A stretch of 64,000 nt of DNA from Candidatus Peribacteria bacterium (GTDB lineage: Bacteria; Patescibacteriota; Gracilibacteria; UBA1369; UBA12463). Each line of letters begins with the position of its first letter. Within the stretch, counting starts at the first letter, position 1. A program made the translations under genes and the position numbers. The notes below the pieces were generated by a model. The model was given only the letters and a program-made list of their open reading frames with translations, was not told the DNA's origin and did no database searches. Where the stretch lies: NCBI GenBank assembly GCA_943354965.1, contig CALRDN010000005.1, positions 25,363 to 89,362 on the forward strand, given 5' to 3'. Of the stretch, positions 4,998-63,071 are shown in pieces.

Positions 4998-5018
4998 TCG
5001 TTGTCGCTTTTGATTTAG

Positions 5019-5236
5019 ATGTATATCCCCCAAGGGACACCCCTGCTGGGGCGCAGGTAATATCCTTTCGCTTCCCTGGCTGGAGTTTATTTTAGTTGTT
5101 TTGAAATGATATCAATTTGATAGCAATTTAGTATCAAGTTGCTATGGGTTTGTATATCGTGGGATATTATTTCAAAAGTAGTATAGAAGAGGTGCCAGGA
5201 AGTGAATTAATGTATATCCCTTGATATCATTTCGAT
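5019..5236 (+). repeat. Intergenic GATATC-rich repeat, copy A
   Basis: Copy A of a three-member family (see also 18315-18531 and 46861-47043). The conserved core runs from GAAATGATATCAATTTGAT through GCTATGGGTTTGTATATCGT (about 5103-5163). Ends related as inverted repeats carry tandem GATATC/TATATC units. The right end overlaps the last codons of murC. The left end is interrupted by a 27-nt hairpin (5027-5053). Confidence 0.85.
5027..5053 (+). repeat. 27-nt mobile hairpin inserted in repeat copy A
   Basis: The hairpin starts CCCCCAAGGGACACC and ends TGCTGGGGCG. It folds as CCCC/GGGG around AGGG-acac-CCCT. It separates TGTATAT from CAGG in the left end of repeat A, whereas copy C at 46861 is uninterrupted there. 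An identical 27-mer is at 18371-18397 and a diverged copy is at 45941-45965. Confidence 0.8.
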
Positions 5237-6529
5237 TTGTTCAGAGAGCGTTACTCCTACTTGATTTATATTTCCTGCCCCCATAGTAATAATTACATCA
5301 AATTGTGATGATATTTTTTGGCATAGAGATATGGTTTTTTCTATTGAGATACCATCCGATGCTTTTACCTCCTTTTTGCCATTTATAGCGTCTACGAGTT
5401 TTTTTACCGATATAGAGGCCTTATCCTTTGCGGTATCTCGCGCTTCATAAATATTAGGAATAATTACCTTGTCGGTTTGAGTGAAGGCGGTGGCGAAGTC
5501 CTTCAGAAAGGCCTTGGTCCGGCTGTACTGGTGGGGCTGGAAGATCGTGAGGATTTTTCCTTTTGGATAGAGCTCACGGATGGCCTCGAGAGTTGCTTTG
5601 ATTTCGGTTGGATGGTGGCCGTAGTCGTCGTAGATTTTTGTTTTCCCTCTTTTACCAATGAACTCCAGGCGACGCTTGGTGCCGCTGAATTCGAGAAGGG
5701 CCTTGAGGGCAACTTTCGGATCAACGTCGAGATATTTGGCGACAGCGAGGGCGAGAGAGGCGTTTTTTTGATTATGAATACCGGGAATGTGCATTTTGAT
5801 CTTTTCAATTTCTACCGGGATGGCGAGTGGATGTTTTACTTTTTTCAGTAATTTTTCTACGGTTTTTTCTCCCTTGAGATAAATAATAGCTCCTGTTTTG
5901 GGGACCATTTTCATATACTTCAAAAAGGCTGCATCATAACGTGCTTTGGTTTTGTAGTAATCAATGTGATCAAAATCAATATTGGTAATAATGAGAATAT
6001 CCGGTGGGATATCGAGAAATGATTTCTTGTACTCACAGGTTTCGATTACGGCGAGGTGGGACGTTCCGAGATGTTCGTTTTGATTATTCAACTCCTTCAC
6101 CTCTGAACCAACGATGACGGTTGGGTCTTTCTTGGCTGCGAGAAGGATACTTGCGACCATCGCCGTGGTCGTTGTCTTGCCGTGAGTACCCGAAATGCAG
6201 ACTTTTGTCTTGTTCTTGAGATACTTCCCTACCGCCTGTGGGTAGGTTATTGATGTTATTTTTCTTCGTTTGGCTTCTTTTAACTCTGGATTGGTAAGTG
6301 GAATTGCCTGCGAATAAATCACCTCATCGATGTTTTTACCGATGTGGGATGTATCGTGAGTTGGGTAGATTTCTATGCCGATTTTTCTGAGTGTCTGTTT
6401 CTTGGCGTTATCAGGTGAGGAGTCGGATCCTGAAACGTGATGTCCCATTTCTGAGAGCATACGGGCAAGGCCGCTGAGGCCGCTTCCTCCAATTCCTATG
6501 GCGAATATGTTTTTCTTTGCTGTTTTCAT
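5207..6529 (-). CDS. murC: UDP-N-acetylmuramate--L-alanine ligase
   Basis: MurC adds L-alanine to UDP-MurNAc in cytoplasmic peptidoglycan precursor synthesis. The N-terminal nucleotide-binding motif is GIGGSGLSGLA, the ATP-binding P-loop is SGTHGKTTTT, and the C-terminal domain has YDDYGHHPTEI and FQPHQYSRT, all typical of MurC. The ATG at 6529 gives 440 residues. An ATG four codons upstream (6541) is possible but adds an atypical MLCS. The final residues (about EMISRDIH) are encoded inside intergenic repeat copy A, so the C-terminus may have been rewritten by the repeat. It diverges from the FtsB-like gene at 6586. Confidence 0.95.
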   Translation of the reverse strand: MKTAKKNIFAIGIGGSGLSGLARMLSEMGHHVSGSDSSPDNAKKQTLRKIGIEIYPTHDTSHIGKNIDEVIYSQAIPLTNPELKEAKRRKITSITYPQAVGKYLKNKTKVCISGTHGKTTTTAMVASILLAAKKDPTVIVGSEVKELNNQNEHLGTSHLAVIETCEYKKSFLDIPPDILIITNIDFDHIDYYKTKARYDAAFLKYMKMVPKTGAIIYLKGEKTVEKLLKKVKHPLAIPVEIEKIKMHIPGIHNQKNASLALAVAKYLDVDPKVALKALLEFSGTKRRLEFIGKRGKTKIYDDYGHHPTEIKATLEAIRELYPKGKILTIFQPHQYSRTKAFLKDFATAFTQTDKVIIPNIYEARDTAKDKASISVKKLVDAINGKKEVKASDGISIEKTISLCQKISSQFDVIITMGAGNINQVGVTLSEQIEMISRDIH

Positions 6530-6585
6530 CGAGCATAACATTACTTTGTTTGTCGGCGCCTGACAAGTATGCTATATATGTAGCC

Positions 6586-7023
6586 ATGAAGTTCGAGTTT
6601 CATCATGCTTCGAGAATGACGAAAATGGTACTCATTGGTGAGTTCCTGCTCGTCTCGTACCTGCTGTATGCGCTTACGACGCATATTTATAATAATTATC
6701 AGATTGATTATCACATCAATAATTTTCGTGCGATGAATGATAAAATCACTCATGACAATAGGAAGGCGGCTGAGGATTTGGTGTATTATAAATCAGATGC
6801 TTTTATTGAAAAGATGGCTAAACAAAACTTCAATCTCGTTAATCAAGGAGAGGAGGTTATTGTGATTTCTGACGACCTACTGCAAACTCCTGTTGCCGAT
6901 AGTAGTTTACCGGATAATTCCGATCAGATTTCGAAGTATTATTCGCTCTCAAACCCGCAAAAGTGGTGGAAGTTTTTCTTTGAGATGGATCATACTTTGA
7001 AGACCGTGAAACCGGCCAATTAG
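6586..7023 (+). CDS. FtsB/DivIC-like septum formation initiator
   Basis: A protein of 145 residues. A short basic N-terminus is followed by one membrane segment (about 14-34) and a coiled-coil-like stretch with N-N-F/A-M-N-D-K-I-T, then the Y-Y-K-x-D-x-F-I-E-K-x-A-K/N-F-N-L-V segment that marks FtsB/DivIC family proteins, whose conserved form is E-x-x-A-R-x-x-L-x-x-V. These proteins form a bitopic complex with FtsL/FtsQ at the division site. The start at 6586 follows a TATGCT/TATATA promoter-like stretch in the intergenic space shared with murC. The longer frame from 6517 would run back into murC and is rejected. Confidence 0.75.
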   Translation: MKFEFHHASRMTKMVLIGEFLLVSYLLYALTTHIYNNYQIDYHINNFRAMNDKITHDNRKAAEDLVYYKSDAFIEKMAKQNFNLVNQGEEVIVISDDLLQTPVADSSLPDNSDQISKYYSLSNPQKWWKFFFEMDHTLKTVKPAN

Positions 7024-7044
7024 TCTTTTGGCTTTGTTCTGCTT

Positions 7045-7072
7045 TTGACTTTCGCTTAAAATGCTCTATACT
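7045..7072 (+). promoter_or_regulatory. Promoter of the initiator tRNA
   Basis: -35 TTGACT (7045-7050) and -10 TATACT (7067-7072) are separated by 16 bases. The tRNA begins 39 bases downstream. Confidence 0.6.
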
Positions 7073-7111
7073 CTTGGCGTTGTTCGTCTAGCTTTGAATG
7101 TTTGCACGCGT

Positions 7112-7186
7112 CGCGGGGTGGAGCAGTGGTAGCTCGCAAGGCTCATAACCTTGAGGTCGGTGGTTCGAGTCCACCCCCCGCAACCA
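7112..7186 (+). tRNA. Initiator tRNA-fMet (CAT)
   Basis: The 5' acceptor strand CGCGGGG faces CCCCGCA, leaving the C1:A72 mismatch that marks bacterial initiator tRNA. The anticodon loop is CTCATAA and CCA is encoded. The anticodon stem reads CAAGG/CCTTG, so the three initiator G-C pairs next to the loop are reduced to two, with A29:U41 replacing one. This variant is also known from mycoplasmas. Confidence 0.93.
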
Positions 7187-7241
7187 GAATGATTATTTGA
7201 TTAGCCGTAAGGTGTATACTCTAAGCATCTTTCTTTTTTCT

Positions 7242-7517
7242 ATGTCATTTTTTGTTTATATCCTTCGTTGTAATGATTCGACCCTTTATGTTGGATCCAC
7301 AAACGACATTGTGCGGAGGTTGTATCAGCATAATAATTTGAAATCCGGGGCGACCTATACGAAGGGACGGCGACCCGTGACGCTTGTTTATTTTGAGAGC
7401 TTTAAGACGTTTAGAGAGGCACATCAAAGAGAGTATGCGCTCAAGTGCTTAACGAGGGAGGAGAAGTTGAAAGTGGTGGCAGGAGTGGGAGTTGAACCCA
7501 CGACCAACGGCTTATGA
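7242..7517 (+). CDS. GIY-YIG nuclease family protein (UPF0213-like)
   Basis: A protein of 91 residues. The start at 7242 gives MSFFVYILRC, the usual beginning of this family, and a TATACT box lies at 7215-7220. The signature appears as FVYILRC followed by LYVGST, with R and Y-Q-H of the helix and G-A-x-Y-T-K-G-R-R-P. Stand-alone members are putative endonucleases of unknown cellular role. The last residues (VGVEPTTNGL) come from reading the complement of the tRNA at 7474-7548. The family domain ends before them, and the stop codon overlaps the complement of that tRNA's anticodon. The gene is flanked by two tRNAs with anticodon CAT. Confidence 0.85.
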   Translation: MSFFVYILRCNDSTLYVGSTNDIVRRLYQHNNLKSGATYTKGRRPVTLVYFESFKTFREAHQREYALKCLTREEKLKVVAGVGVEPTTNGL

Positions 7518-7548
7518 GTCCGCTGCTCTACCACTGAGCTACCCTGCC
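7474..7548 (-). tRNA. tRNA with anticodon CAT (elongator Met, or Ile2 if lysidine-modified)
   Basis: On the minus strand GGCAGGG pairs with CTCCTGCC-type 3' acceptor bases. The D-arm TAGCTCAGTGGTAGAGC is canonical, the T-loop is GGTTCAACTCC and CCA is encoded. The anticodon loop is CTCATAA. The pair next to the loop is A:G instead of A:U. Sequence alone does not separate elongator Met from tRNA-Ile2. It overlaps the end of the GIY-YIG gene antisense. Confidence 0.88.
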
Positions 7549-7621
7549 AAGAGTACGATTGTGGTCGCGGAAAGTGTAATGGAGGAGACTTGGAATTGCA
7601 AGTCTTAGCTTTCGTTTCTCT

Positions 7622-8653
7622 TTATTCGGCGATCCAAGCCTGAACCTGCTTCTGAATATCCTCGTAATTGCCTGTTTTTGGCAGGAGAATCCACTGACCT
7701 TGCTTGTTGTAGGTAGAGTAGACCAAGCCGGATCCTTCGATGACATGGCTCGTTTTGATCGTATAATCGGCTGTTTGTGAGGCTAGGGCCATTGCGTCTG
7801 TAAATGATACATTTGTCTTGATATTCTTGTTGAGATTTTCGTAAAGGCTGCTGAGGATGTTATAGAAATCCCCTGCCTGTAGTCGATCCTTTACGGCACT
7901 GATAACCTCCTGTTGTCGCCTGGATCGATCATAGTCAGAGGTAGATTTGCGGCTACGTGCGTATTTGAGGGCGAGAGCACCATCTAAATGATGAGGTCCT
8001 GCGCTTATAGAAAATACCTCATAATCGATTTTGTTTTTTGGGTACTGATAGTCGCGAATGGCTTTTTCGACATTAATATCAATTCCACCAATAGCATCGA
8101 TAAACTGCGTGAATGCCTTCATATCTACGATAATGAACTTGTCGAGTTTAATATTTGTAACTAGCTCAATTTTTTCCGCTAATTTTTGAATACCGAAGAA
8201 TTCATAAAACTCGTTAATCTTTCTCCCATCAATGGCGAAATCTCGGGGAATGCTTATGAGGGTTACTTCTTTGTTCTTGTTGTTGAGGACGGCGATGATG
8301 ATGGAATCGGTGAGCTGACTATGCTGACCGACGAGCAGATACGCTGTGGTATCGGATGCAGGTACGAGCGATGGAGAACTTGTTGTGACCGTTTGGCTTG
8401 TCTGTTCTGTTGCTACGTCCCCTTTCGTAATTTCTTGCGATAGAGGTATTAGTCGCATTTCGTTTTTTTCAGGCGGTATTGATGTGGTTATATTTCCTGC
8501 CTTCAGATTTCCAATCTCATCTATCAGTACATTGATTTGGGCTTGTTTTAGTTTTAAGTCTTTCACGATATTAATTCCGGATACAAGCATCGTTAGCGTG
8601 GCAATTGATATTACCGTAACGAGTACTGCGAGATTTAATTTCCAGTGTTTCAT
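7622..8653 (-). CDS. LytR-CpsA-Psr (LCP) family protein
   Basis: LCP enzymes transfer lipid-linked polymers onto peptidoglycan at the outer face of the membrane. The protein has 343 residues. A membrane anchor spans about 7-27 and a Ser/Thr-rich linker runs to about 105. The LCP domain follows, with LLVG, L-T-D-S-I-I-I-A, S-I-P-R-D, K-I-N-E-F-Y and Y-A-R-S-R with R-R-Q-Q-E. The first conserved Asp/Arg site (usually LxGxDxR) is GQHSQL, so one metal or phosphate ligand appears altered. The start ATG overlaps the stop of the TraG-like gene (ATGA), so the two are translationally coupled. Confidence 0.9.
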   Translation of the reverse strand: MKHWKLNLAVLVTVISIATLTMLVSGINIVKDLKLKQAQINVLIDEIGNLKAGNITTSIPPEKNEMRLIPLSQEITKGDVATEQTSQTVTTSSPSLVPASDTTAYLLVGQHSQLTDSIIIAVLNNKNKEVTLISIPRDFAIDGRKINEFYEFFGIQKLAEKIELVTNIKLDKFIIVDMKAFTQFIDAIGGIDINVEKAIRDYQYPKNKIDYEVFSISAGPHHLDGALALKYARSRKSTSDYDRSRRQQEVISAVKDRLQAGDFYNILSSLYENLNKNIKTNVSFTDAMALASQTADYTIKTSHVIEGSGLVYSTYNKQGQWILLPKTGNYEDIQKQVQAWIAE

Positions 8654-11385
8654 TGTGGTGTTTGTGTTGGAGTTGTCGGTACTGCCGGTGCAGCTGGTTC
8701 TGGAGTGGACACGATGGGTGTTTGAGGCTCTGTAGGCGCAGGAGTTGCTTCGACTCCGAGTGTTGCTGCGAGTGCTCCTTCAGTTGTCTCCGGTGGTGTT
8801 TCCGGTTCGGCCTCGATACCGATTCTCGCCATGATTTCTTGCTCAACGAAGTCGTGTTTACGGCCGTACTTCATACGAGCGTACTCACGAACGATTGCTC
8901 CAATCTTCTTATTCTCACCCTTCTTATCCCAAATGGTTTCGAGAGAGAATGGACGGGAGGTGGTATTATTAATATTAAGTTTTACGTAGGCTTTATAGTT
9001 GGAGATACCCACGAGATCTTGCTCTGTAACGATTGGGGCAAATTCTTTTGCGAGGTATTCAGCATCTTCCGCGCCCACCTTGAAGGCGCAAATGGTACCA
9101 ACGTTACCGAAGACGGCATCGCGGATTTGCGTGTTACTCGAGCCTGTTTTGGTCACTACGAGCTGACTGATATACTGATGAGCCATGATCAACGCGAGAT
9201 GGTACTTACGAGCCTCAGATAGAATTGATGCAAAGCTTTCTGTGGCAAAGTTCTGGAACTCATCTACATAGAGGTAGAAGTCACGTCGTTGTTCTTCCGG
9301 GATATCGGCACGACTCATGGCTGCCATCTGAATACGAGCTACCATGATCAAACCGAGAAGCTGCGTGTTGAGGTCACCGATCTTACCCTTTGAGAGGTTC
9401 ACGAGGAGAATTTTCCCGGAGTCCATACACTCACGGAAGTTAAAGGCGGACTTTGGCTGTCCAATCGTATTACGCATAATGGAGTTCGTAATAAACGGAC
9501 CGAATTTTGCAGAGAAGTACGGGATCATTTCCTGCTTTTCTCTATCGCCGGTTTCGGCATACTCATGCTTCCAGAATGAGAGAACAACCGGGTTTTTCGC
9601 CTTACTGATTTTGTAATTTCTGAATTCCGTATCCACAAAGATTCTTGGGACGTCGATAAGTGTTGCACCCTCGTCCGGGTCCTCCATGAGCGTCAAGCAG
9701 GCATTACGGAAGTAGTGCTGAATACGAGGTCCAAAGATCTCATCACCGAATAACTTGATAAAGATCTCTGTCGCCTGGCTCGAGGCGAGGTCCTGCTCTT
9801 CCGGCGTCTTGGCCTCGAGAATATTGAGACCCATAGGTCTGTCAGTATCACCGGCATCGAATATGACTACATCCTTTACTCGCTCCTTTGGAACATAGTT
9901 TAAAGCATCCTCAATCAAGTCTCCATGCGGGTCGATGACACAGATTCCCTCTCCGTTTTTGATATCCTGACGAATCATATAACTCAAGAGCGAAGACTTA
10001 CCTGAACCGGATTTACCAATGATATACTGGTGACGAGCGCGATCTTTCTTCAGGAAGACGACCGGCTTGATCACACCTCGATAACTGTTATTTCCGAGCA
10101 TCATGCCTTCCATACCCATATCAGCCGGGACTGGCAGCTTCTTGTACGAGAGCCACATGATAGACGGCGTGAAGTTATACTTGCCATCCGGAAAGTGGTA
10201 TACCGTTGCGAGCTCTTCTTCCGAGAGAATATTTTCCCTCTCTCCCCACCCGAAGATTCTTGTTTCCAAAATTCTTTTATTAAAGTTCCGTAACATATAC
10301 ATGTTATTGATGAAGTCAATTGGAATGACTCTACGAGTGTCGAATCCATTTGATCCCTCATCGTTAACGGAGTTGATAGCGATCTCCATACTACTCATCA
10401 TTTTCTGTGCTTTCTCTTCGGTAGAAGAGGATGCGATCATTCTGATGACTACGTGAAAATTAGATTGCTGGGACTTTTCACCCATTCTTTTTGCCGTGTC
10501 TTCTTTGCTCGCGATCATACGTACCATACCTCGCTGATAATAGTCTTCTCCTTTTTCTTGCTTCTGGTCGTCCTTTCCTTTTGCGGCTAGTGAAAATAAA
10601 TCTCCGATGAATCCAAGTATTGATGATCCCTTTGGATTTCCTTCACTATCTACAGGTCTTCCCTGAAATATGGCTTCACTTACTTTCAAAGCTTTGTTTG
10701 CAATTTTTTTCGCGGCAGGTCTCATGATTATTTGAATGCCCCCCACTTCATCTTCGTCCATCTTGGTGAAGATATTCGTAATAGCATTGAGCGGGTCATT
10801 TTCAATTGTTTTGAATGTTTTGATGGGGAACCAGTATTTTTCCTTTTGCTTAACGTAGAAGCATTTAATGAAATTTGTGTCGGTTTTTTTGATATAAATC
10901 GGGCTCACTGGCTCAATCTCGGCACTTGGATATAGTGACGTAATTTGTTTTTCGATTAGTGCACTGTAACTTTCGACCGTTACGACATAGAAGTTGATTA
11001 TTTTCTTTTCTACGATAATTTCAAAGGAGAATATATCAGAGTGGAAGAAGAATCTTCGTACCATGTTCATGATGTTGAGGCCGCGAAGCTCGTAGAGCGA
11101 GCGGTAGCACTGCTGCATGATGGCTATTTTTTCTTTTAGGTCCTTCTGGACTTCCTTCTCCTTATCCTTCTGCGAGTCTTCACGTGGAAGTGTTACCTTG
11201 AAATAGACATTTTTTACATGCCCTATATACAAGTATCGAAGGAACCAAGATAAAAAGTGGAGCGCAAGGGGTACTCCAATAACTACTACTATGATCGCAA
11301 TTGGATTTGCTTTTGTGAAGCTCCAGACGATGTTCCAGTAGTGAGAAATGAGAGCCGTATCGATGTTTATTTTTGGAAGCGTCAT
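8650..11385 (-). CDS. Membrane-anchored TraG/VirD4-VirB4-like ATPase, paralogue 1
   Basis: A protein of 911 residues. One N-terminal membrane region (about 29-55) is followed by a family-specific alpha/beta region and a HerA/FtsK-type P-loop ATPase with Walker A GKSGSGKSS near 455, DPHGDLIED after it, and Walker B FYLYVDEFQN near 707, then S-E-A-R-K-Y and A-H-Q-Y. The C-terminus (after about 860) is a Pro/Thr/Glu-rich tail. Families of this build act as coupling proteins or DNA pumps in type IV secretion and conjugation. No other secretion gene is nearby. A close paralogue lies at 36796-39342. It heads an operon with the LCP gene, driven by the promoter at 11423-11451. Confidence 0.82.
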   Translation of the reverse strand: MTLPKINIDTALISHYWNIVWSFTKANPIAIIVVVIGVPLALHFLSWFLRYLYIGHVKNVYFKVTLPREDSQKDKEKEVQKDLKEKIAIMQQCYRSLYELRGLNIMNMVRRFFFHSDIFSFEIIVEKKIINFYVVTVESYSALIEKQITSLYPSAEIEPVSPIYIKKTDTNFIKCFYVKQKEKYWFPIKTFKTIENDPLNAITNIFTKMDEDEVGGIQIIMRPAAKKIANKALKVSEAIFQGRPVDSEGNPKGSSILGFIGDLFSLAAKGKDDQKQEKGEDYYQRGMVRMIASKEDTAKRMGEKSQQSNFHVVIRMIASSSTEEKAQKMMSSMEIAINSVNDEGSNGFDTRRVIPIDFINNMYMLRNFNKRILETRIFGWGERENILSEEELATVYHFPDGKYNFTPSIMWLSYKKLPVPADMGMEGMMLGNNSYRGVIKPVVFLKKDRARHQYIIGKSGSGKSSLLSYMIRQDIKNGEGICVIDPHGDLIEDALNYVPKERVKDVVIFDAGDTDRPMGLNILEAKTPEEQDLASSQATEIFIKLFGDEIFGPRIQHYFRNACLTLMEDPDEGATLIDVPRIFVDTEFRNYKISKAKNPVVLSFWKHEYAETGDREKQEMIPYFSAKFGPFITNSIMRNTIGQPKSAFNFRECMDSGKILLVNLSKGKIGDLNTQLLGLIMVARIQMAAMSRADIPEEQRRDFYLYVDEFQNFATESFASILSEARKYHLALIMAHQYISQLVVTKTGSSNTQIRDAVFGNVGTICAFKVGAEDAEYLAKEFAPIVTEQDLVGISNYKAYVKLNINNTTSRPFSLETIWDKKGENKKIGAIVREYARMKYGRKHDFVEQEIMARIGIEAEPETPPETTEGALAATLGVEATPAPTEPQTPIVSTPEPAAPAVPTTPTQTPQ

Positions 11386-11422
11386 TTGTTGGTTTTGGTT
11401 TTAGCCTTTTTTACTTCTTTTC

Positions 11423-11451
11423 ATTATATCATATTTTAGCTTTGGCGGCAA
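11423..11451 (-). promoter_or_regulatory. Promoter of the TraG-like/LCP operon
   Basis: On the minus strand -35 TTGCCG (11446-11451) is 17 bases from -10 TATAAT (11423-11428), which is preceded by TGA (extended -10). The start codon is at 11385, giving a leader of about 30 bases. Confidence 0.75.
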
Positions 11452-11563
11452 GGGTGGTGGCTTGCTTGTCACGTGATTTCTTTGGTTTTTTTTCAGCTTC
11501 AAAAAGTCACATATTATTCAAATATAGTATAATATTAGTTTCTGCGTGCGCAGAAGTTGCTCG

Positions 11564-11908
11564 TTATCTACCTAATACCGCTCCAATTACCTCGTCTAGG
11601 TGACAGTATCCTTTTTTGAATACACCTGCGCACTTCAACTTTATGTCCGGGTTGAGGCTTTCCGGAAGCGTACTGAGAACTACAACTCTGATATTTTTCT
11701 CTAGAGCAGCCTGGGCGACGGCTTCCCCATCGCCACGATGTGGCATATGCAAGTCGGTGAGCACGGCGTCGATGTTTTCATTTTTGAGGATTTCCAGTGC
11801 CTGCTCCTTGTCTTGAGCTTCAAAAACCTCCGTGTTCTTTCGTAACATCACCGCCAGTTCGTTTCGGAGGGCGTCGTTATCTTCCGCTATGAGAATATTT
11901 TTTCGCAT
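11564..11908 (-). CDS. Stand-alone response-regulator receiver domain
   Basis: A protein of 114 residues from the ATG at 11908. A longer frame from 11938 lies inside the methyltransferase gene. It consists only of a CheY-like receiver: acidic pair in ILIAEDND, phospho-acceptor Asp in VLTDLHMP, Ser/Thr in VVVLST and Lys in GVFKKGY. There is no output domain, so it would act through a partner protein. The ATG shares one base with the stop of the upstream methyltransferase gene (TAATG), which means coupled translation. No histidine kinase is in the window. Confidence 0.88.
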   Translation of the reverse strand: MRKNILIAEDNDALRNELAVMLRKNTEVFEAQDKEQALEILKNENIDAVLTDLHMPHRGDGEAVAQAALEKNIRVVVLSTLPESLNPDIKLKCAGVFKKGYCHLDEVIGAVLGR

Positions 11909-13023
11909 TACTTTGAGAGAAATGAGTAGAGATAGCACTTGATTCCTCCATTGAATAATTTTCTATTCTTGTCGGCTGGTCGGCCAAAGAGCTGGGGGAA
12001 GTTTTCACTCGGAGTGATGATGAAGAGCGAACAGTTTCTTGATTGTGCGAACTCCTTCCCAAATTCTCGATACATTTTTTCAACAGATGGCTTATCTTCC
12101 AGTCGTTCGCCGTACGGTGGATTACAGATGAAGGTGGTGTTTTCAAACTTGGCAAAGTCGATATCGTGGAAGTCTGTGCACTGGAAGTTAATATTTCTGA
12201 AACCTGCATTGCCGGCGTTTCCCCCTGCTGTTCGAAGTATCCCCGCGTCGATATCAAAACCATAGATTCGCAGTTTTACCTCTGATTTTTTCTCCGCTTG
12301 AGCCTCTTCATGGATGTTCTTAAACATATTTTGGTCTATCCATGGCCACTTTTCGAAAGCAAATGTTCGATTGAGGCCGGGCGCTATATTCTGCGCCATG
12401 AGTGCCGCCTCGATGAGAATTGTTCCGCTTCCGCAAAATGGATCGACTAACGTGCGATCAGGAGTCCAGTCCGAGAGCTTCACCATCGCCGCAGCGAGCG
12501 TCTCCTTCATTGGTGCTTCGTTGGTCTTGGTACGGTAGCCACGTTTATGGAGACTATCGCCCGAGGAGTCGATCGTAATGACGAACTGATCTTTGTTCGA
12601 CTTCACCATGATCTGATAGGTGGCCCCTGAATTTTCCGAGAGAATTTCGCTCTTATGTTTCAATTGAAGTCTCTTTACTACTGATTTTTTTACAATACTT
12701 TGGATGGCCGGTTCGGAGTGGAGTATAGATTTCACACTCGTGGCGTCTACGGGAAAAGCGTCACTCTTGCCAATATACTTCTCCCATGGGAGTACTCCTA
12801 CCATGTCGAATAGCTCATCAAATGTTGTCGCCTGGAACTCCCCCATCTTTATCTGAATACGATCGGCGCAGCGGAGCCAGAGGTTGGCTTGTATCATTGC
12901 CTTCTCGTCACCCTCAAAGGTGATCCTTCCATCCTCGGTTTTGAGAATAGGCAGGCCCAGCTTCTTGAGCTCATCCTGTACGAGCTTTTCCAGTCCAAAG
13001 GCGCATGTAGCAATCAGTTCCAT
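11908..13023 (-). CDS. THUMP-domain class I RNA methyltransferase (RlmL/YpsC-like)
   Basis: A protein of 371 residues. The N-terminal region (about 1-150) matches the ferredoxin-like plus THUMP part of RlmL/YpsC proteins (M-E-L-I-A-T-C-A-F-G-L-E). The C-terminal Rossmann methyltransferase has RGYR, DPFCGSGTILIEAALMA for SAM binding, GFDID and the catalytic NPPYGERL. Family members make N2-methylguanosine in 23S rRNA (G2445-type). The substrate here is inferred. It lies 16 bases behind the NUDIX gene and overlaps the receiver gene by one base. Confidence 0.9.
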   Translation of the reverse strand: MELIATCAFGLEKLVQDELKKLGLPILKTEDGRITFEGDEKAMIQANLWLRCADRIQIKMGEFQATTFDELFDMVGVLPWEKYIGKSDAFPVDATSVKSILHSEPAIQSIVKKSVVKRLQLKHKSEILSENSGATYQIMVKSNKDQFVITIDSSGDSLHKRGYRTKTNEAPMKETLAAAMVKLSDWTPDRTLVDPFCGSGTILIEAALMAQNIAPGLNRTFAFEKWPWIDQNMFKNIHEEAQAEKKSEVKLRIYGFDIDAGILRTAGGNAGNAGFRNINFQCTDFHDIDFAKFENTTFICNPPYGERLEDKPSVEKMYREFGKEFAQSRNCSLFIITPSENFPQLFGRPADKNRKLFNGGIKCYLYSFLSK

Positions 13024-13039
13024 GCGCGTACTGTACCTT

Positions 13040-13480
13040 TTATTCGGAAATTTTGAAATAGTGCTTTATACAGGCGTCCAAATCGGTAATCAGCTTCATT
13101 TGAAGCGCTTCTTGCGGAGTAACCCATTTATAATCTTTGTGCTCGCTTGGCCTTAGAATGATTTCTGGTCTTTCCGTATAGGATGTAGAAAACGAGTGAT
13201 ACAGAAAATCATACTCGGGATAACGAACGTGCAAACTGTCGTGAAATGTAATGTCTTGGCCTGGAATAATTAGCCCTGTTTCTTCCTGTATTTCGCGAAT
13301 CATTCCTTCATGAATGGACTCACCTTTCTCTCTCTTCCCTGCCGGTAATCCCCAAACATTTGGCTGTAAATCGTCCGAGTCCTGACGGTGGAGCAGTAGT
13401 ATTTTTCCATCATGTATCAAGAAGCAACTCACTACCTCGAAGCGTGGATTGAAGTCCGATGGAGATTGAGAGTGGAGCAT
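13040..13480 (-). CDS. NUDIX hydrolase
   Basis: A protein of 146 residues with a complete Nudix box: G in AGKREKGES, then R-E-I-Q-E-E-T-G-L at about residues 60-70, plus W-G-L-P-A-G before it. Nudix enzymes hydrolyse nucleoside diphosphates linked to another group. The substrate cannot be read from sequence. It stands between three unknown genes and the THUMP methyltransferase in one closely packed minus-strand operon. Confidence 0.9.
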   Translation of the reverse strand: MLHSQSPSDFNPRFEVVSCFLIHDGKILLLHRQDSDDLQPNVWGLPAGKREKGESIHEGMIREIQEETGLIIPGQDITFHDSLHVRYPEYDFLYHSFSTSYTERPEIILRPSEHKDYKWVTPQEALQMKLITDLDACIKHYFKISE

Positions 13481-13484
13481 GATG

Positions 13485-14054
13485 TTATTTTTCTAATTTC
13501 TTTTGTTCAGTTTTTCCTAATCTTAGGACTCCTTCAATCATTGACCTTCCCCATTCCACAAGCGATCTGATGGCAATTTCTGTTTTTACTGCGCTGGGTT
13601 GAGCATTGATATATCTTTTTACGGCACGCATTTTTCCGCCGCGTGATTCTTCATAAAATTTATGTACAAATGCCATACCTTCCGGAGTGTCTGCCTCAAT
13701 GTGTTGCGCAATTTCTCTCGCGTTATATTTTTTTGGATTTGAAACAATAAACATATTCTCTGCAACCGGCCTATCTTGAATTGGGGCATGTTTTACGACA
13801 TCGAGAAGATCTCTTTTTGCATTTTTTAAAACTTCTGCCTTTTTCTCTCTATATAAGGTAATCAATGAGAATACGGCTGGGTCGCGTGCTGTCATTTTTC
13901 TTATGAGCTCATCTCGCGAAAATGATCCGACTCCAGGAATTTTCATGCCTTGACTCCTGCTTAATTTGGAAATCATCGTAATCATCTTTCCGAGTTCCTC
14001 CTCGGTAACTTCTGCCATTCCTCCACTTTCTACGTCCGTTTTTGTTTCTACCAT
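13485..14054 (-). CDS. Unrecognised protein, 189 residues
   Basis: I do not recognise this family. The protein is soluble, charged and predicted mostly helical, with no signal peptide or membrane segment. It ends in a Lys/Glu-rich tail (TEQKKLEK). It is the third gene of a tight operon (15 bases behind the 275-residue gene, 4 bases before the NUDIX gene). The close spacing and coding-like composition support a real gene. Function unknown. Confidence 0.65.
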   Translation of the reverse strand: MVETKTDVESGGMAEVTEEELGKMITMISKLSRSQGMKIPGVGSFSRDELIRKMTARDPAVFSLITLYREKKAEVLKNAKRDLLDVVKHAPIQDRPVAENMFIVSNPKKYNAREIAQHIEADTPEGMAFVHKFYEESRGGKMRAVKRYINAQPSAVKTEIAIRSLVEWGRSMIEGVLRLGKTEQKKLEK

Positions 14055-14069
14055 ATTTTTTTATGAGAT

Positions 14070-14897
14070 TTATAGCGCAGACTTTGCTGCAGGGTCTCTC
14101 AGGTTAGCAAACATTCTCTCCCATTCCATATCAGAATATCCCATCTGAATTCCCAATGGAACATGTCCTAAATCTCTTTTGGCCATTGCAATGAGGTCAA
14201 CTGGATTTAACGTTGAATATGTAGCCATTCTTTCCTTGTGACTTAATCCACCACCGCTGAGCCTCGTGACATCACGTCTTAAGGAAGCAAAAGTGAGATC
14301 CCCTCTATGTAAAATATTCGTCGCCAAATTTTTCAGGATTGCATTCAGTGTCTCGGTATAATCCGGGCTAAATTGCATCAATAAATTTCGTGCTTCATCG
14401 CTGAGTAAGTCAGCATGACTCATTTCCTTATCATGCCGAAGAGTGGTTGAGAATGTTAATGTTTCGCTCCCTAGATGTAATACATCTCCTTTCCCGCCTT
14501 TTTCTTCTGCTGGTATTCCGGATCTCAGGGATAATATATCCCAGACTGCTCCTCCTATTTTGTGTCGAAATATAATTATGAGTTTATTTGTAGAGAGTGT
14601 AGAGGCACGGGCAAGCGGTATTTCTTGATATGCGTCCCTTTCGTTACGGGCATGATTATGACGAGGTATTACCGGGACTACCTCCAAGACCTCTCGATCC
14701 ACATAACTTGCTTCCTGGATTGCCATGAGGAGATTTCCGATAATGGCATTTATCTGCGCAAGAGATGTTTCAGGAATTCCAATACTATTTGCTGCACTTA
14801 TGTACTGAGTATTTTTGAAATCAGAAGGCGTGACAATCTCACCCTTATCCGAAAGGCTTTTGAATTGTCCATCGAGATGTAATGATCCGTATGACAT
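14070..14897 (-). CDS. Unrecognised protein, 275 residues
   Basis: No family is recognised. The protein is soluble, mixed alpha/beta in appearance, without membrane segments. It has 3 bases of spacing behind the 74-residue gene and 15 before the 189-residue gene. The trio appears to be one functional unit that may be transcribed through into NUDIX, methyltransferase and receiver genes. Function unknown. Confidence 0.65.
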   Translation of the reverse strand: MSYGSLHLDGQFKSLSDKGEIVTPSDFKNTQYISAANSIGIPETSLAQINAIIGNLLMAIQEASYVDREVLEVVPVIPRHNHARNERDAYQEIPLARASTLSTNKLIIIFRHKIGGAVWDILSLRSGIPAEEKGGKGDVLHLGSETLTFSTTLRHDKEMSHADLLSDEARNLLMQFSPDYTETLNAILKNLATNILHRGDLTFASLRRDVTRLSGGGLSHKERMATYSTLNPVDLIAMAKRDLGHVPLGIQMGYSDMEWERMFANLRDPAAKSAL

Positions 14898-14900
14898 GGT

Positions 14901-15125
14901 TTATAGCGTTGGATAATCATTAATCACATTCTGGAGTAACTCTATTGCTCCTTTATTTTGCATTAATGCTATGGCCCTTCGCGCCTCACGAATATAGAGA
15001 GACCTTATATTATTTCCATCTGAATCTCCGCAGGGTTTGGCAATATGCGTAAGCAAAAAGAGTGCATGCTGCATATCTAGCAGGCTATCTTTCATTGGTT
15101 GATCTGGTGTCTCTCCTAAGCTCAT
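14901..15125 (-). CDS. Small unrecognised protein, 74 residues
   Basis: The first gene of the minus-strand operon. It is short and helical (L-L-D-M-Q-H-A-L-F-L-L and R-R-A-I-A-L-M), with no recognised motif. A purine-rich AAGGAGG sits just upstream on the other strand, not on its own, so translation lacks an obvious ribosome-binding site. It is supported mainly by its position three bases before the next gene. Confidence 0.5.
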   Translation of the reverse strand: MSLGETPDQPMKDSLLDMQHALFLLTHIAKPCGDSDGNNIRSLYIREARRAIALMQNKGAIELLQNVINDYPTL

Positions 15126-15289
15126 ATTTTTTCAAATAAGGAGGAGAGTGTATCAATTCCCGTGCCTTGAGGCAATATTTTTCATTTTGTATGATTTTGA
15201 TGAATTTGCCACTATAAAATTCATGATTTTGCTGTTCTATGTCAGCTTTTTGTTAGATCCATGGTGTAGCGTTGTAATTACCAGATTCC

Positions 15290-15360
15290 GGGGGTTTGCC
15301 GGTGCACTCACTGGACTCGTCATTCCAGTGATACGGGTTCGACTCCCGTAACCTCCACCA
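15290..15360 (+). ncRNA. tRNA-like 3' module with G3:U70 pair (degenerate tRNA-Ala or tmRNA 3' end)
   Basis: GGGGGTT (15290-15296) can pair with AACCTCC near the 3' end with one G:U at position 3:70, the alanine identity element. A perfect T-arm (ACGGG/CCCGT around TTCGACT) and ACCA follow. Between them a perfect 8-bp stem (TCACTGGA/TCCAGTGA) with an 8-base loop replaces the normal anticodon arm, and no proper D-arm can be drawn. A strong terminator follows at 15376-15412. No tmRNA tag-coding region or 5' half is visible upstream, so this is a relic, an attachment-site fragment, or an aberrant RNA. The spacer 15126-15289 holds nothing else I can name. Confidence 0.45.
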
Positions 15361-15432
15361 GTCTGGGAGACGAAGAAAAAGAGCTACCTAAACAGTTAGG
15401 TGGCTCTTTTTTGGGAACTCACTGGACTCGTC
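15306..15432 (+). repeat. 16-bp direct repeat flanking the tRNA-like 3' half
   Basis: ACTCACTGGACTCGTC occurs at 15306-15321, inside the tRNA-like module, and again at 15417-15432, just after its terminator. The spacing is 111 bases. This looks like a recombination or duplication scar. Confidence 0.7.
15376..15412 (+). terminator. Rho-independent terminator
   Basis: An 11-bp stem (GAGC-T-ACCTAA with TTAGGT-G-GCTC) has a 4-base loop ACAG, an A-run before it and TTTTTT after it. It ends the tRNA-like transcript and could also serve the opposing operon that ends at 15452. Confidence 0.85.
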
Positions 15433-15451
15433 GGTGCTATTATAGCATATA

Positions 15452-15718
15452 TTATTTATTCTTCAAAAGATCTATATCAATCTCGAGGTTCTCGGCGTTC
15501 TGCCTAATAGTCATTTTGGCATCCTCGATAGCCCTATTATACATATCCTTCGAGAGAGCCTCCTGGAAAAAATCTAGGATTTCCCCAGCGGCCAGCATGC
15601 CAATCTCCTCACCTCTTTCTTTTTCGAAGTAGGTTGTGATTTCTCTGATGAAGCCTGAACGCCTTTCTTTGCTTAAGATATCACACTTTCGTTTAATGGT
15701 TGCCATAAATATGTACAT
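15452..15718 (-). CDS. DUF2164 family protein
   Basis: A protein of 88 residues, or 84 if it starts at 15706. It matches the DUF2164 pattern Y-F-E-K-E-R-x-E-E-I-G-x-L-A-A-x-x-I-L-D-F-F, followed by Y-N-x-A-I-x-D-A. The family's function is unknown. The ATG at 15718 immediately follows the stop of the upstream gene (TAAATG), which favours the longer form. It is last in a five-gene operon headed by dtd and glyQS. Confidence 0.85.
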   Translation of the reverse strand: MYIFMATIKRKCDILSKERRSGFIREITTYFEKERGEEIGMLAAGEILDFFQEALSKDMYNRAIEDAKMTIRQNAENLEIDIDLLKNK

Positions 15719-15970
15719 TTATAATTCGGCAAACTCCGATGGAGTGCCGTTGTGAAACTCGTCAAAACTTTCTTTTGTGACTTCCTGGAAGTTATTTATA
15801 GTAATATTCGTATCTTGTCCGGCATCTTTATCGAATACTGCTTTTATTTTATTTTTTGCCTCGAGAATCGGAAAGAAGTTTTTGTCCGTTGAAAACACGG
15901 ACATATGCGTAAAATGCTGATGCGTAGCATTTATGACGAGCGTGAAATTGACGAAGTAATATTTTTTCAT
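15719..15970 (-). CDS. Small unrecognised protein, 83 residues
   Basis: No family is recognised. The N-terminal half looks like beta strands (YYFVNFTLVINA, H-Q-H-F-T-H-M-S-V-F-S) and the C-terminal half is acidic. There are four bases between it and the upstream gene and none between it and the DUF2164 gene. Operon position supports it. Function unknown. Confidence 0.6.
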   Translation of the reverse strand: MKKYYFVNFTLVINATHQHFTHMSVFSTDKNFFPILEAKNKIKAVFDKDAGQDTNITINNFQEVTKESFDEFHNGTPSEFAEL

Positions 15971-15974
15971 AGCG

Positions 15975-16373
15975 TTATACGTTTAATGAATATTTCATAA
16001 TTGTAAAAGCAGATTCATCCTTCTTCTTTTCATTATATATGACTGAAAATGCTTCATTTACGTCGTTTACGCAATGCCCAATTACTATTCCTTGAGGAGT
16101 AATCTCTCCAAGATCACGAGTCTGCTCGAGTTTCATTGATAGTCCACGATCTCGTAATAGGTCTGCTAGCTTAGACATTCCCAGTACTGTCTTCATGGCT
16201 TTATCTATCTCAGCACGTAATATTTTTATTTTTGATATCTTTGTACATCGACGACAAACCTTTTCACAGCACCTATCCCGACCTTCACCTATAAGGTCTC
16301 GAAGTAGTTTTTGCTGCTTGATCATTGGGGAATCAAGGAAGTTTCGAAGGGCCGAGAGAATGTTTAGGGTCAT
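15975..16373 (-). CDS. Unrecognised protein with a cysteine cluster, 132 residues
   Basis: Near residues 34-43 it carries C-C-E-K-V-C-R-R-C, which could bind a metal such as zinc. The rest is helical and charged with no recognised domain. It begins eight bases after glyQS, so it is probably co-transcribed with it. Function unknown. Confidence 0.6.
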   Translation of the reverse strand: MTLNILSALRNFLDSPMIKQQKLLRDLIGEGRDRCCEKVCRRCTKISKIKILRAEIDKAMKTVLGMSKLADLLRDRGLSMKLEQTRDLGEITPQGIVIGHCVNDVNEAFSVIYNEKKKDESAFTIMKYSLNV

Positions 16374-16381
16374 ATACTTAT

Positions 16382-17782
16382 TTATATCGTCAGTCCCTTC
16401 CCATTAAACCACTCTACCAACTCATCAATAGCTACTCTTTCCTGGGCCATGGTGTCGCGATCGCGTACTGTGACCTTTTTGTCTTCTACCGTGTCGAAAT
16501 CAATCGTAATACAATATGGTGTACCAATCTCATCCTGACGGCGGTATCTCTTGCCGATGGAGCCGGTTTCGTCGTATTGGCACATCCAGGACTTTTTGAG
16601 TTTGTTGGCAATTTCGTGGCCGATTGTTGAGAGGGGTTCTTTTTTGGATAATGGGAGGACGGCCATCTTGATAGGAGCGAGCTTTTTTGGGAGACGGAGA
16701 ATGTATTCTTTTTCGTGAACGGTATCTTCTTCGCCGGATCGGGCGTCGAGTTCTTCGAAGGCGGAGCAGAGGACGACCAAGAGAGTGCGGTTGAGACCCC
16801 ATGTAGGTTCGATGCAGTGTGGCATGAATACTTCATTGGTGAGCGGGTCGCGGTACTGGAGGTCTTGCTTGGAGGCCTTGGAGTGGGCCTGGAGATCGAA
16901 GTCCGTACGGTAGGCGATACCGTAGAGCTCTTTGAGACCAAATGGGAACTGGTATTCGGTGTCGACGGAGCGTTTGGAGTAGTGGGCGCGGTCTTCGGGG
17001 GCGATCTCGTGGAAGACGAGGTTTTCTGGTTTGGCACCAATGGCGGTGAGCCAGTTTTTCTGCTGATCGAGCCAGTATTCAAACCACTTTTCCCAATCGT
17101 TTGGATGGACAAAGAACTCAATTTCCATCTGCTCGAACTCGCGGGTACGGAAGATGAAGTTTCCAGGAGTGATCTCGTTGCGGAAGGCGTGGCCGATCTG
17201 GGCGATACCGAATGGGATTCTTTGACGGCTGGTTTCTTGGATCGTCTTGAAGTCGACGAACATACCCTGGGCGGTCTCGGGACGCAGATAGACCGTGTTC
17301 TCGGCGTCGCTTGTTGGACCGAGGTGTGTCTGGAACATCATGTTGAACTGTTTTGGCGGGGTGAGCTCGTTTCCTTTTGGAGATTTGAGGTTTATGTCCG
17401 TTGCCTTCTGTACCATATCGTCGAAAGACATGCCGTTCACATTAACTCCTTTTTCCTCGAGGAGGTGATCGAGACGGTAGCGTTCATTTGTTTTTTTGTC
17501 CTCTACGAGTGGATCGTTGAAGTTGGCGACGTGGCCGGAGGCCTGCCAGACTTTTGGGTTCATGATGAGGGCGGCATCGAGACCGACGACGTCATCGCGT
17601 TCCTGAACGAACGTTTTCCACCAGAGTTTCTTGATGTTGTTTTTGAGTTCGACTCCGAGTGGTCCGTAGTCCCATGAGTTTGCGAGACCACCATAGATGT
17701 CGCTTCCGGGGAAGATGAATCCCCTTCTTTTACAAAGAGATGTAATTTTTTCCATAATGGAGTTTGCGTCCGGTTTAGCCAT
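16382..17782 (-). CDS. glyQS: Glycyl-tRNA synthetase, single-chain (alpha2) type
   Basis: A class II synthetase of the eukaryote/archaea/Gram-positive type, not the bacterial alpha2beta2 enzyme. The protein has 466 residues. Motifs are RRGFIFPGSDIYGG at the N-terminus, GPLGVELKNN, the motif 2 region with FRNEITP and F-E-Q-M-E-I-E-F-F, and motif 3 as E-P-T-W-G-L-N-R-T. The C-terminal anticodon-binding domain contains VLPLSKKE and YRRQDEIGTPYCITID. It lies 11 bases downstream of dtd, which fits a shared role in tRNA charging quality. Confidence 0.96.
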   Translation of the reverse strand: MAKPDANSIMEKITSLCKRRGFIFPGSDIYGGLANSWDYGPLGVELKNNIKKLWWKTFVQERDDVVGLDAALIMNPKVWQASGHVANFNDPLVEDKKTNERYRLDHLLEEKGVNVNGMSFDDMVQKATDINLKSPKGNELTPPKQFNMMFQTHLGPTSDAENTVYLRPETAQGMFVDFKTIQETSRQRIPFGIAQIGHAFRNEITPGNFIFRTREFEQMEIEFFVHPNDWEKWFEYWLDQQKNWLTAIGAKPENLVFHEIAPEDRAHYSKRSVDTEYQFPFGLKELYGIAYRTDFDLQAHSKASKQDLQYRDPLTNEVFMPHCIEPTWGLNRTLLVVLCSAFEELDARSGEEDTVHEKEYILRLPKKLAPIKMAVLPLSKKEPLSTIGHEIANKLKKSWMCQYDETGSIGKRYRRQDEIGTPYCITIDFDTVEDKKVTVRDRDTMAQERVAIDELVEWFNGKGLTI

Positions 17783-17793
17783 GGGGTGTTTTG

Positions 17794-18252
17794 TTATGCG
17801 TTAGATGTAGGATGATTTTTTTCGAGTGTGAATGTAGCAGGGCCGTCGTTTACGAGCGAGACCATCATATGTGCGCCGAACTCTCCTGTTTGGATGTTGA
17901 GATTTGTCGCCTTGAGAAGTTCTACTGTTTTTTCATACAGAGGTTTTGAGTGGTCGGGCCGTGAGGCGTTAGCAAAATCAGGGCGTCGCCCCTTGTCGCA
18001 TGAGCCATAGAGTGTGAACTGAGATACGATGAGGATTTCTAATTTTGCATCGAGCACCGAGAGGTCGAACTCCTGTTCTCCTTGTGGGAAGAGTCGGAGG
18101 TTCGCGATCTTCTCTACTATCCACTTCGCTTCGTCTTCAGTATCGGTTTGCGTGATTCCTAGGAAAACGAGGAGACCTTTTTGGATAGTGCCGATTGTTT
18201 GGGCGCCGACGGTTACGGAGGCGCTGTTTACTCGTTGAATGATAGCTTTCAT
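17794..18252 (-). CDS. dtd: D-aminoacyl-tRNA deacylase
   Basis: Dtd hydrolyses D-aminoacyl-tRNA (and Gly-tRNA-Ala). The protein has 152 residues. The N-terminus MKAIIQRV is typical, the active-site strand is SQFTLYGSCDKGRRPDF, and the cross-subunit Gly-cisPro region is NDGPATF, close to the usual NxGPVT. It is the first gene of a minus-strand operon with glyQS. Upstream lies repeat copy B. Confidence 0.95.
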   Translation of the reverse strand: MKAIIQRVNSASVTVGAQTIGTIQKGLLVFLGITQTDTEDEAKWIVEKIANLRLFPQGEQEFDLSVLDAKLEILIVSQFTLYGSCDKGRRPDFANASRPDHSKPLYEKTVELLKATNLNIQTGEFGAHMMVSLVNDGPATFTLEKNHPTSNA

Positions 18253-18314
18253 AGTTCTTTCCTTATAGTGTGCTTATTATAGACAGACGGCAGGGGTATT
18301 GTCGAGTGACGAAA

Positions 18315-18531
18315 GTGATATCACTTGATATCCTTTGGTGCGGTTTCTAGCATGTCTTTTACCCTACTTTCCCCCAAGGGACACCCCTGCTGGGGCGTGA
18401 AAAGCTATCCTACGATATACAAACCCATAGCAAGTTGATACTAAAATGCTATCAAATTGATATCATATCAAAAACACCCCAGGGATATACCACCAAGTGA
18501 ACGAAAGGATATCACCTGATATACATTGATC
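18315..18531 (-). repeat. Intergenic GATATC-rich repeat, copy B
   Basis: Copy B lies in reverse orientation to copies A and C. Read on the minus strand it starts with GTATATCAGGTGATATCC (right end here) and contains the same core, with the ATAGCA/TGCTAT dyad, as copy C. It ends with a GATATC-rich inverted repeat at 18315-18335. A 27-nt hairpin interrupts it at 18371-18397. It fills most of the spacer between dtd and the winged-helix gene. I see nothing else in 18532-18718 beyond a possible upstream extension of that gene. Confidence 0.85.
18371..18397 (+). repeat. 27-nt mobile hairpin inserted in repeat copy B
   Basis: Identical base for base to 5027-5053 but inserted at another position of the repeat and in the opposite orientation relative to it. 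Copy C has TTTTCAAAAGTAG at this position with no insert. Confidence 0.8.
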
Positions 18532-44887: not shown

Positions 44888-44892
44888 CGTTG

Positions 44893-44901
44893 TGCTATAC
44901 T
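44893..44901 (+). promoter_or_regulatory. Extended -10 promoter giving a leaderless ruvB mRNA
   Basis: TGC plus TATACT (44896-44901). The ATG at 44908 is six bases after the hexamer, i.e. at the expected first base of the transcript. Confidence 0.6.
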
Positions 44902-44907
44902 CCGGGT

Positions 44908-46827: not shown

Positions 46828-46860
46828 TTAGCCTTGATTGGCTACCTCAATGTTTTTGTA

Positions 46861-47043
46861 TGTATATCAGGTGATATCCTTTCGCTTCCTTGGTGGTAGT
46901 TCCCTGGGTGTGGTTTTGAAATGATATCAATTTGATAGCATTTTAGTATCAACTTGCTATGGGTTTGTATATCGTAGGATAGCTTTTCAAAAGTAGTACA
47001 TGGGATACAGAAAAAGTTCACCAAAGGATATCAAGTTATATCA
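46861..47043 (+). repeat. Intergenic GATATC-rich repeat, copy C (uninterrupted)
   Basis: The left end TGTATATCAGGTGATATCC and the right end GGATATCAAGTTATATCAC form imperfect inverted repeats. The core has ATAGCA/TGCTAT and GGGTTTGTATATCGTAGGATA. This copy lacks the 27-nt hairpin found in copies A and B, so it shows the empty sites. Confidence 0.85.
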
Positions 47044-47076
47044 CTTCTCACATTCGACCTGATGGAAAATAATCTG

Positions 47077-61946: not shown

Positions 61947-61959
61947 TACAAACTACGCC

Positions 61960-63034: not shown

Positions 63035-63071
63035 CATTTATACCCCCCCAATACGCGCTTGCGTGACCCCC

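What the first reader, a model, noticed from the sequence alone, without database searches (positions are those of the whole stretch)
5027..18397. An identical 27-nt hairpin has inserted at two different points of the same repeat family
The 27-mers at 5027-5053 and 18371-18397 are identical. In repeat copy A it separates TGTATAT from CAGG. In copy B it separates TTTTCA from AAAGTAG, in opposite relative orientation. Copy C at 46861-47043 has both sites uninterrupted. So the hairpin moved after the larger repeat had spread, without a visible target-site duplication. It has a nested dyad (CCCC/GGGG outside AGGG/CCCT) and no coding capacity. I know of no described element matching it. It may be copied by a host transposase, like REP/BIME hairpins.
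Basis: partly seen in the sequence, partly recalled or inferred. Interest (0 to 1): 0.78.

Follow-up and report, generated by a model that had tools for sequence, protein, structure and literature searches.

The report
27-letter hairpins hopping into genes
A 27-letter DNA element with more than 100 copies in five related Peribacteria genomes has inserted, cleanly and in frame, into many housekeeping genes, and because its copies tend to point the same way along the chromosome it likely spreads as a short folded strand during DNA replication, moved by a predicted but unidentified enzyme.

Summary
The two 27-mers are real, identical and inserted at different points of one repeat. They belong to a larger family: a covariance model finds 105 matches at E<=1e-3 (120 at E<=0.1) in the five genomes of one Peribacteria/Peregrinibacteria genus and one marginal match in 84 other genomes of the order. 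At 14 of 23 gene loci tested, an orthologue lacks exactly 27 nt. Units lie in frame inside MurG, DnaG, iPGM, MurJ, AroA-AroK, LeuS, ArgS and others, so the element is coding. Units also insert into and beside each other. Orientation follows the keto-rich (presumed leading) strand in 66 of 83 cases but not gene direction, which suggests single-stranded insertion at replication forks. Pfam Y1_Tnp reaches its cut-off in none of the five genomes, and no reverse transcriptase was found in the genome with most copies, so the mobiliser is unknown. It works like REP/RPE elements and mitochondrial hairpin elements, but fails the tag and transposase tests of REPs: a new variant of a known kind.

The parts
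5027..5053 (+). 27-nt double-hairpin unit in repeat copy A (H1 5028-5036, H2 5038-5053)
18371..18397 (+). identical 27-nt unit in repeat copy B (H1 18372-18380, H2 18382-18397)
45939..45965 (+). diverged unit TTCCCAAGGGACAACCCCGCTGGGCCG read in frame near the C-terminus of ruvB
5019..5234 (+). repeat copy A (GATATC-ended repeat), split by the unit at its left end
18301..18526 (-). repeat copy B, split by the unit at an internal point
46860..47058 (+). repeat copy C, uninterrupted at both points (empty-site reference)
44890..45996 (+). ruvB, whose reading frame runs through the third unit

Best explanation
The 27-mers belong to a genus-specific family of 27-nt double-hairpin DNA elements that has inserted at many sites, including in frame within proteins, and that likely moves as a folded single strand into replication forks, predicted to be driven in trans by an enzyme not yet identified. 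Shown by the calls: copy number, sites that differ by exactly 27 nt between orthologues, compensatory stem changes, in-frame read-through, nesting and arrays, and an orientation that follows the keto-rich strand but not gene direction. Inferred: that the keto-rich strand is the leading strand, so that the CCCCC strand lies on the lagging-strand template; that the hairpins are what is recognised; that the intermediate is single-stranded; that a trans-acting enzyme exists. Survival inside genes is explained by the length (nine codons) and by residues that proteins tolerate, mostly in three of the six frames; no benefit to the host need be assumed.
For: 105 model matches at E<=1e-3 in five genomes of one genus and 1 marginal in 84 others of the order. 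Orthologues lacking exactly 27 nt at 14 of 23 loci, 28 comparisons. Covariation 0.346 against 0.127 +/- 0.012, 0.455 against 0.188 +/- 0.015 on the other strand. Strand: 66 of 83, P = 5.6e-8, in G000 21/27, G001 10/12, G003 35/44, while relative to genes it is 15 against 21 of 36. Preferred junction G/T^C/T: 47 of 54 and 49 of 54. Another unit or part next to 24 of 78. Uneven frame use, chi-square P = 0.005. Insertion into the lagging-strand template and strand-specific hairpins are established for IS200/IS605 elements (PMC6006769, passages).
Against: No mobiliser found: Y1_Tnp over cut-off in 0 of 5 genomes. The strand that pairs better is the GGGGG strand, not the CCCCC strand that would lie on the lagging-strand template; this fits a plain IS608-like model badly, though it rests mostly on positions 13/26 and 14/25, which are inherited in subfamilies. 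Leading strand is inferred from skew, not from a mapped origin; contig C3 of G000 is only 4 of 8. Two of five covariation measures on the CCCCC strand are not exceptional (60 and 96 of 500 shuffles). Fold energies of single units are weak. 9 of 23 gene loci gave no clean 27-nt comparison.
Confidence: 0.55

Rival explanations
1. RNA-mediated spread: the GGGGG strand is an RNA that folds with G-U pairs and is copied back into DNA, for instance at the fork, by a reverse transcriptase.
For: That strand pairs in 93.9% of cells against 83.5%; RVT_1 is over cut-off in G000 and G004.
Against: No RVT_1 match in G003, which has most copies, and only sub-threshold ones in G001 and G002. Orientation is not biased relative to genes, 15 against 21 of 36.
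Confidence: 0.15
2. The multi-copy HNH endonuclease family mobilises the units by cutting and repair, as proposed for intron endonucleases and yeast mitochondrial GC clusters.
For: In G003 7 of the 13 HNH genes or fragments viewed carry a unit (one of them a weak match); three have it at the same codon position of the HNH motif. One more each in G000 (L076) and G002 (L051).
Against: The HNH family is in 61 of 79 genomes of the order while the units are confined to one genus. Units at the HNH motif introduce a stop codon, so these genes look like victims. Only 1 of 8 HNH genes viewed in G000 carries a unit.
Confidence: 0.1
3. A true REP-type family whose Y1 transposase (RAYT/TnpA) is too diverged for Pfam, was lost, or lies in an assembly gap.
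For: Size, hairpin with a conserved non-Watson-Crick position (13/26), strand bias. E. coli REPs have a conserved stem mismatch needed for cleavage (PMC8266576, passages). G004 has a sub-threshold Y1 match, E 0.028.
Against: GTAG or CGTC abuts 0 of 78 units on either side; Y1_Tnp over cut-off in 0 of 5 genomes, although the same search is over cut-off in 6 of 14 control genomes.
Confidence: 0.12
4. The unit is a functional cis element (terminator, RNA signal, or a stretch that ribosomes bypass) kept by selection rather than a mobile element.
For: Hairpin structure is conserved and length is fixed.
Against: Seven of eight clear sites of this genome are empty in the sister species. Frame use is uneven, which bypassing would not require. 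No terminator-like site was found in window 4900-5300.
Confidence: 0.05

Closest known systems
Rickettsia palindromic elements (RPE); Wolbachia palindromic elements
   Same: Palindromic repeats read in frame inside conserved proteins and also found between genes; no known mobiliser (PMC2229807 and PMC10969869, passages).
   Different: RPEs are given as 105-146 bp or about 150 bp; here the unit is always 27 nt, a double hairpin with compensatory stems, nested and strand-biased, in another phylum. Two short RPEs are counted as CGTC REPs (PMC3733652, passages); the tag is absent here.
REP sequences (GTAG and CGTC families) and TnpAREP/RAYT
   Same: 20-40 nt hairpins, a conserved stem mismatch, intragenic copies in some species (PMC3733652, PMC8266576, passages).
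   Different: No GTAG or CGTC tag next to any of 78 units, no Y1 transposase over cut-off.
IS200/IS605 elements (IS608, ISDra2)
   Same: Strand-specific hairpins, insertion into the lagging-strand template through single strands (PMC6006769, passages).
   Different: No TnpA found, no fixed tetranucleotide target, whole element only 27 nt.
Mitochondrial double-hairpin elements, yeast GC clusters, byps
   Same: Short GC-rich mobile hairpins, tandem arrays, presence/absence between relatives, unknown mobiliser (PMC4478555, passages and one section; double-hairpin and byp papers only as reference entries or recall).
   Different: Bacterial chromosome; GC clusters are flanked by AG or ACT repeats, here at most one base; read in frame in many housekeeping genes.

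Membership tests
REP (GTAG or CGTC type) | 20-40 nt palindromic repeat | tested here: met
   27 nt, hairpins with covariation
REP (GTAG or CGTC type) | GTAG or CGTC tag at one end | tested here: not met
   abutting 0 of 78 on either side; within 8 nt GTAG 2 and CGTC 5 occurrences; an internal CGTC on the GGGGG strand in 14 of 78
REP (GTAG type) | associated Y1 transposase (RAYT/TnpAREP) | tested here: not met
   PF01797 over cut-off in 0 of 5 genus genomes; one sub-threshold match in G004; assemblies are in many contigs
RPE-like protein-coding palindrome | read in frame inside conserved proteins | tested here: met
RPE (Rickettsia) | sequence and size of the described Rickettsia elements (about 105-150 bp) | tested here: not met
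   unit is 27 nt; sequence not compared with RPE entries
IS200/IS605-type element | orientation bias relative to the replication fork | tested here: inconclusive
   66 of 83 follow the keto-rich strand; origin not mapped
IS200/IS605-type element | fixed target tetra- or pentanucleotide | tested here: not met
   only G/T^C/T preferred; TTAC or TTGAT abuts at most 1 of 78 (motifs recalled)
Double-hairpin element (mitochondrial type) | two adjacent hairpins kept by compensatory changes | tested here: met
Double-hairpin element (mitochondrial type) | sequence relation to described mitochondrial elements | not tested
   no sequences compared
MITE | terminal inverted repeats with target-site duplication of a parent transposon | tested here: not met
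   hairpins are side by side, not terminal repeats; orthologues differ by exactly 27 nt; a one-base duplication is possible, as position 1 equals the next base in 40 of 54

The most novel reading that the evidence does not exclude
A 27-nt folded strand that spreads through a bacterial chromosome with no transposase of its own or of its host: the folded GGGGG strand is built into nascent lagging-strand DNA between Okazaki fragments by replication and ligation. That would fit both its better pairing and the orientation bias, and make it the smallest self-spreading DNA known in a bacterium.
Probability: 0.12. Interest if true: 0.93.

Novelty: new variant of a known kind. Interest (0 to 1): 0.72.

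Why it matters
How short palindromes without a transposase spread is open. This family appears young (seven of eight clear sites of this genome are empty in the sister species), is very short and fixed in length, lives in small Patescibacteria genomes and is strand-biased. Gains, losses, target choice and strand can be read site by site, and it supplies natural nine-residue insertions in enzymes such as MurG, DnaG and LeuS that appear to be tolerated.

Tried and rejected
Y1/RAYT mobiliser: none over cut-off. Reverse transcriptase as common mobiliser: no match in the genome with most copies. Element-target covariation as in IS200/IS605 guides: 220 position pairs, lowest P 0.0015, not convincing after correction; pair 1/+1 had been tested before on its own. 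Phage or viral carriers: exact pattern 0 matches in viral contigs. Rfam at gathering threshold: only five tRNAs in the window. HNH as mobiliser: its distribution does not follow the element. In genome contigs the exact pattern gave 29 stretches: 18 in three Peribacteria/Peregrinibacteria assemblies and 11 single ones in other bacteria that I took as chance and did not inspect. Print: the searches listed no paper that I recognised as describing this element, judged by titles and abstract starts; bioRxiv and most subscription papers are not held.

Rows dropped: of 89 hits with up to 3 mismatches I left out 7 with 3 mismatches and 4 others that did not look like the element (in L039, L044, L055, L061), leaving 78; this favours the pairing figures slightly. 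One nested unit read by eye in L060 was added to give 64 distinct rows. Strand test: 105 rows at E<=1e-3, less 12 further units of arrays or nests collapsed by hand, leaves 93; G002 (5), G004 (1) and four units on contigs not fetched were left out, leaving 83. Frame count: 44 units in long spanning frames, collapsed to 36 loci. The relaxed pattern hits in G004 include doubtful ones.

Full report
Observation. The two 27-mers are identical and lie where stated, on the same chromosomal strand but in opposite orientation relative to the larger repeat. Copy C of that repeat is uninterrupted at both points. A diverged third unit at 45939-45965 lies in the reading frame of ruvB near its C-terminus.

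Family. The own genome (G000, 1.16 Mb in 23 contigs) has four exact copies and three more within 3 mismatches. A relaxed pattern, CCCCNAGGGACNNNNCTGCTG with up to 2 mismatches, gives 26 in G000, 11 in G001, 4 in G002, 38 in G003, 3 in G004 and 0 in three genomes of the sister genus; the reversed pattern gives 0 in all eight. A covariance model gives 33, 16, 6, 60 and 5 matches at E<=0.1, 120 in all, of which 105 have E<=1e-3. In the order, beside these five genomes, 1 of 84 has a match, a marginal one (E 0.007; stricter filters).

Anatomy. Sixty-four distinct units align without gaps and fit two hairpins: H1 pairs 2-10, 3-9 and 4-8 with a three-base loop; H2 pairs 12-27 to 17-22 with loop TGCT. 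Pair 3-9 occurs as C-G, A-T and T-A; 12-27 as C-G, A-T and G-C; 15-24 in all four Watson-Crick forms. The covariation score is 0.346 against 0.127 +/- 0.012 in shuffles and at most 0.099 when partners are slid; two further measures, the number of pairs changed on both sides and of further pair types, are reached by 60 and 96 of 500 shuffles. Read on the other strand the score is 0.455 against 0.188 +/- 0.015 and 93.9% of cells pair, against 83.5%. The difference comes mostly from A.C at 13/26 and 14/25, which are T.G on the other strand; such states are inherited in subfamilies, so I treat the strand inference as suggestive only.

Movement. At 23 gene loci I compared the filled gene with orthologues in the genus. 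At 14 of 23, in 28 comparisons, an orthologue lacks exactly 27 nt with no other gap near the site: iPGM (L071), DnaG (L072), L075, MurJ (L084), two sites in family-2 glycosyltransferase genes (L005, L091), NAD(P)H-hydrate dehydratase (L092), a PD-(D/E)XK protein (L093), glucose-6-phosphate isomerase (L107), a T2SSE-type ATPase (L097), MurG (L007), AroA-AroK (L025), UppP (L046) and a polysaccharide deacetylase (L065); names. The other nine (L094, L076, L077, L081, L082, L069, L004, L030, L031) were arrays, variable or paralogous regions, or aligned unclearly and count neither way; LeuS (L031) shows 27 nt in the multiple alignment but 24 in the pairwise one. Of eight clear sites of this genome with a G001 orthologue, seven are empty there and one is filled (L005/L032), although the two species share 87-97% identity in three proteins. 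LeuS and ArgS carry units in G001 and G003 but not in G000, which groups with G001 (three proteins, support 0.98): either loss or repeated gain at one place.

Target and ends. In 54 isolated units the base before is G or T in 47 and the base after C or T in 49. Position 1 equals the next base in 40 of 54, and the two vary together (Fisher P = 2.7e-4 on the 48 C/T rows). The element may thus be 26 nt with a one-base duplication; copy B of the window, C against T, does not show it. Of 78 units 24 have another unit or part of one next to them: head-to-tail arrays in ArgS of G001 and G003, in a 6PGD gene and in L108 of G003, and units inside H2 of another (L073, L013, L100, L089, L060, L066).

Strand. 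With the keto-rich strand taken as leading, the CCCCC strand is co-linear with it in 66 of 83 (P = 5.6e-8): G000 21 of 27, G001 10 of 12, G003 35 of 44; with skew of at least 0.15, 41 of 47. Contig C3 of G000, weakly skewed, is 4 of 8. Relative to genes the orientation is 15 against 21 of 36, so gene direction does not explain it. A few sites are shared by descent, so P is somewhat too small. Single-strand insertion at forks, as established for IS608 (PMC6006769, passages), is the simplest reading, but the better-pairing strand is the other one, which that model does not predict.

Coding. In 36 loci within long open frames, use of the frames is 11, 1, 3 (forward) and 2, 10, 9 (reverse); chi-square against even use P = 0.005. 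Part of this comes from stop triplets, which 51 of 64 variants hold in some frame. I infer that inserts are translated and filtered by what the protein tolerates. In G003 three HNH genes carry a unit at the same codon of the HNH motif, with a stop in frame: not all insertions are harmless.

The larger repeat. Sixteen copies were collected, from G000 and G001. Their ends carry TATATCAGGTGATATC-like motifs. Six copies have a unit at TATAT^CAGG of the right end, most with a second unit nested in it or traces of one; copy A of the window has it at the left end. No other copy has a unit exactly at the B point; L258 has one 4 nt before it, followed by sequence like the repeat end, as if two copies had been joined at a unit. 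So B is an event of its own; A may be one or may result from exchange between ends.

Mobiliser. Y1_Tnp reaches its cut-off in 0 of 5 genomes (one sub-threshold match in G004). RVT_1 is over cut-off in G000 and G004 only. An HNH family is in 61 of 79 genomes of the order, most without the element; in G003 7 of 13 HNH genes or fragments viewed carry a unit, in G000 1 of 8. The enzyme remains open: one not covered by these searches, one lost, or none.

Known kinds. It works like RPEs (in-frame palindromes), REPs (short hairpins with a conserved mismatch) and mitochondrial double-hairpin elements. It fails the tag and transposase tests of REPs and differs from RPEs in size. Of PMC10969869, PMC2229807, PMC3733652, PMC8266576, PMC6006769 and PMC2800124 I saw passages, of PMC4478555 passages and one section; Allomyces double-hairpin elements, byps and Wolbachia elements come from reference entries or recall.

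Verdict. A real, recently active, genus-specific mobile 27-nt double hairpin; a new variant of a known kind; movement as a single strand at the fork is likely but unproved.

Noticed in passing
window 5019-5234, 18301-18526, 46860-47058; copies in L208, L211-L214, L219, L223, L248, L249, L252, L258, L011, L019: An unnamed repeat of about 180-200 bp with TATATCAGGTGATATC-like motifs at its ends, 13 BLAST matches in this genome (two of them one copy) and more in G001; looks MITE-like.
   Followed up: partly
L051, L057, L060, L076, L089, L271-L290: A multi-copy HNH endonuclease family of about 290 aa, in 61 of 79 genomes of the order, with no Pfam family over its cut-off in five members tested.
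   Followed up: partly
L267 (G000:C7:320-931); also G000:C13:320-931 and C16:1247-1714: Reverse-transcriptase genes near contig ends of this genome, apparently a repeated element.
   Followed up: no
window 61958-62065 and 63070-63177: Two direct repeats of 108 nt, 91% identical, 1112 nt apart.
   Followed up: no
L258 530-613 region: A repeat copy in which an internal stretch is joined through a unit to sequence like the repeat end, as if units serve as recombination points.
   Followed up: no
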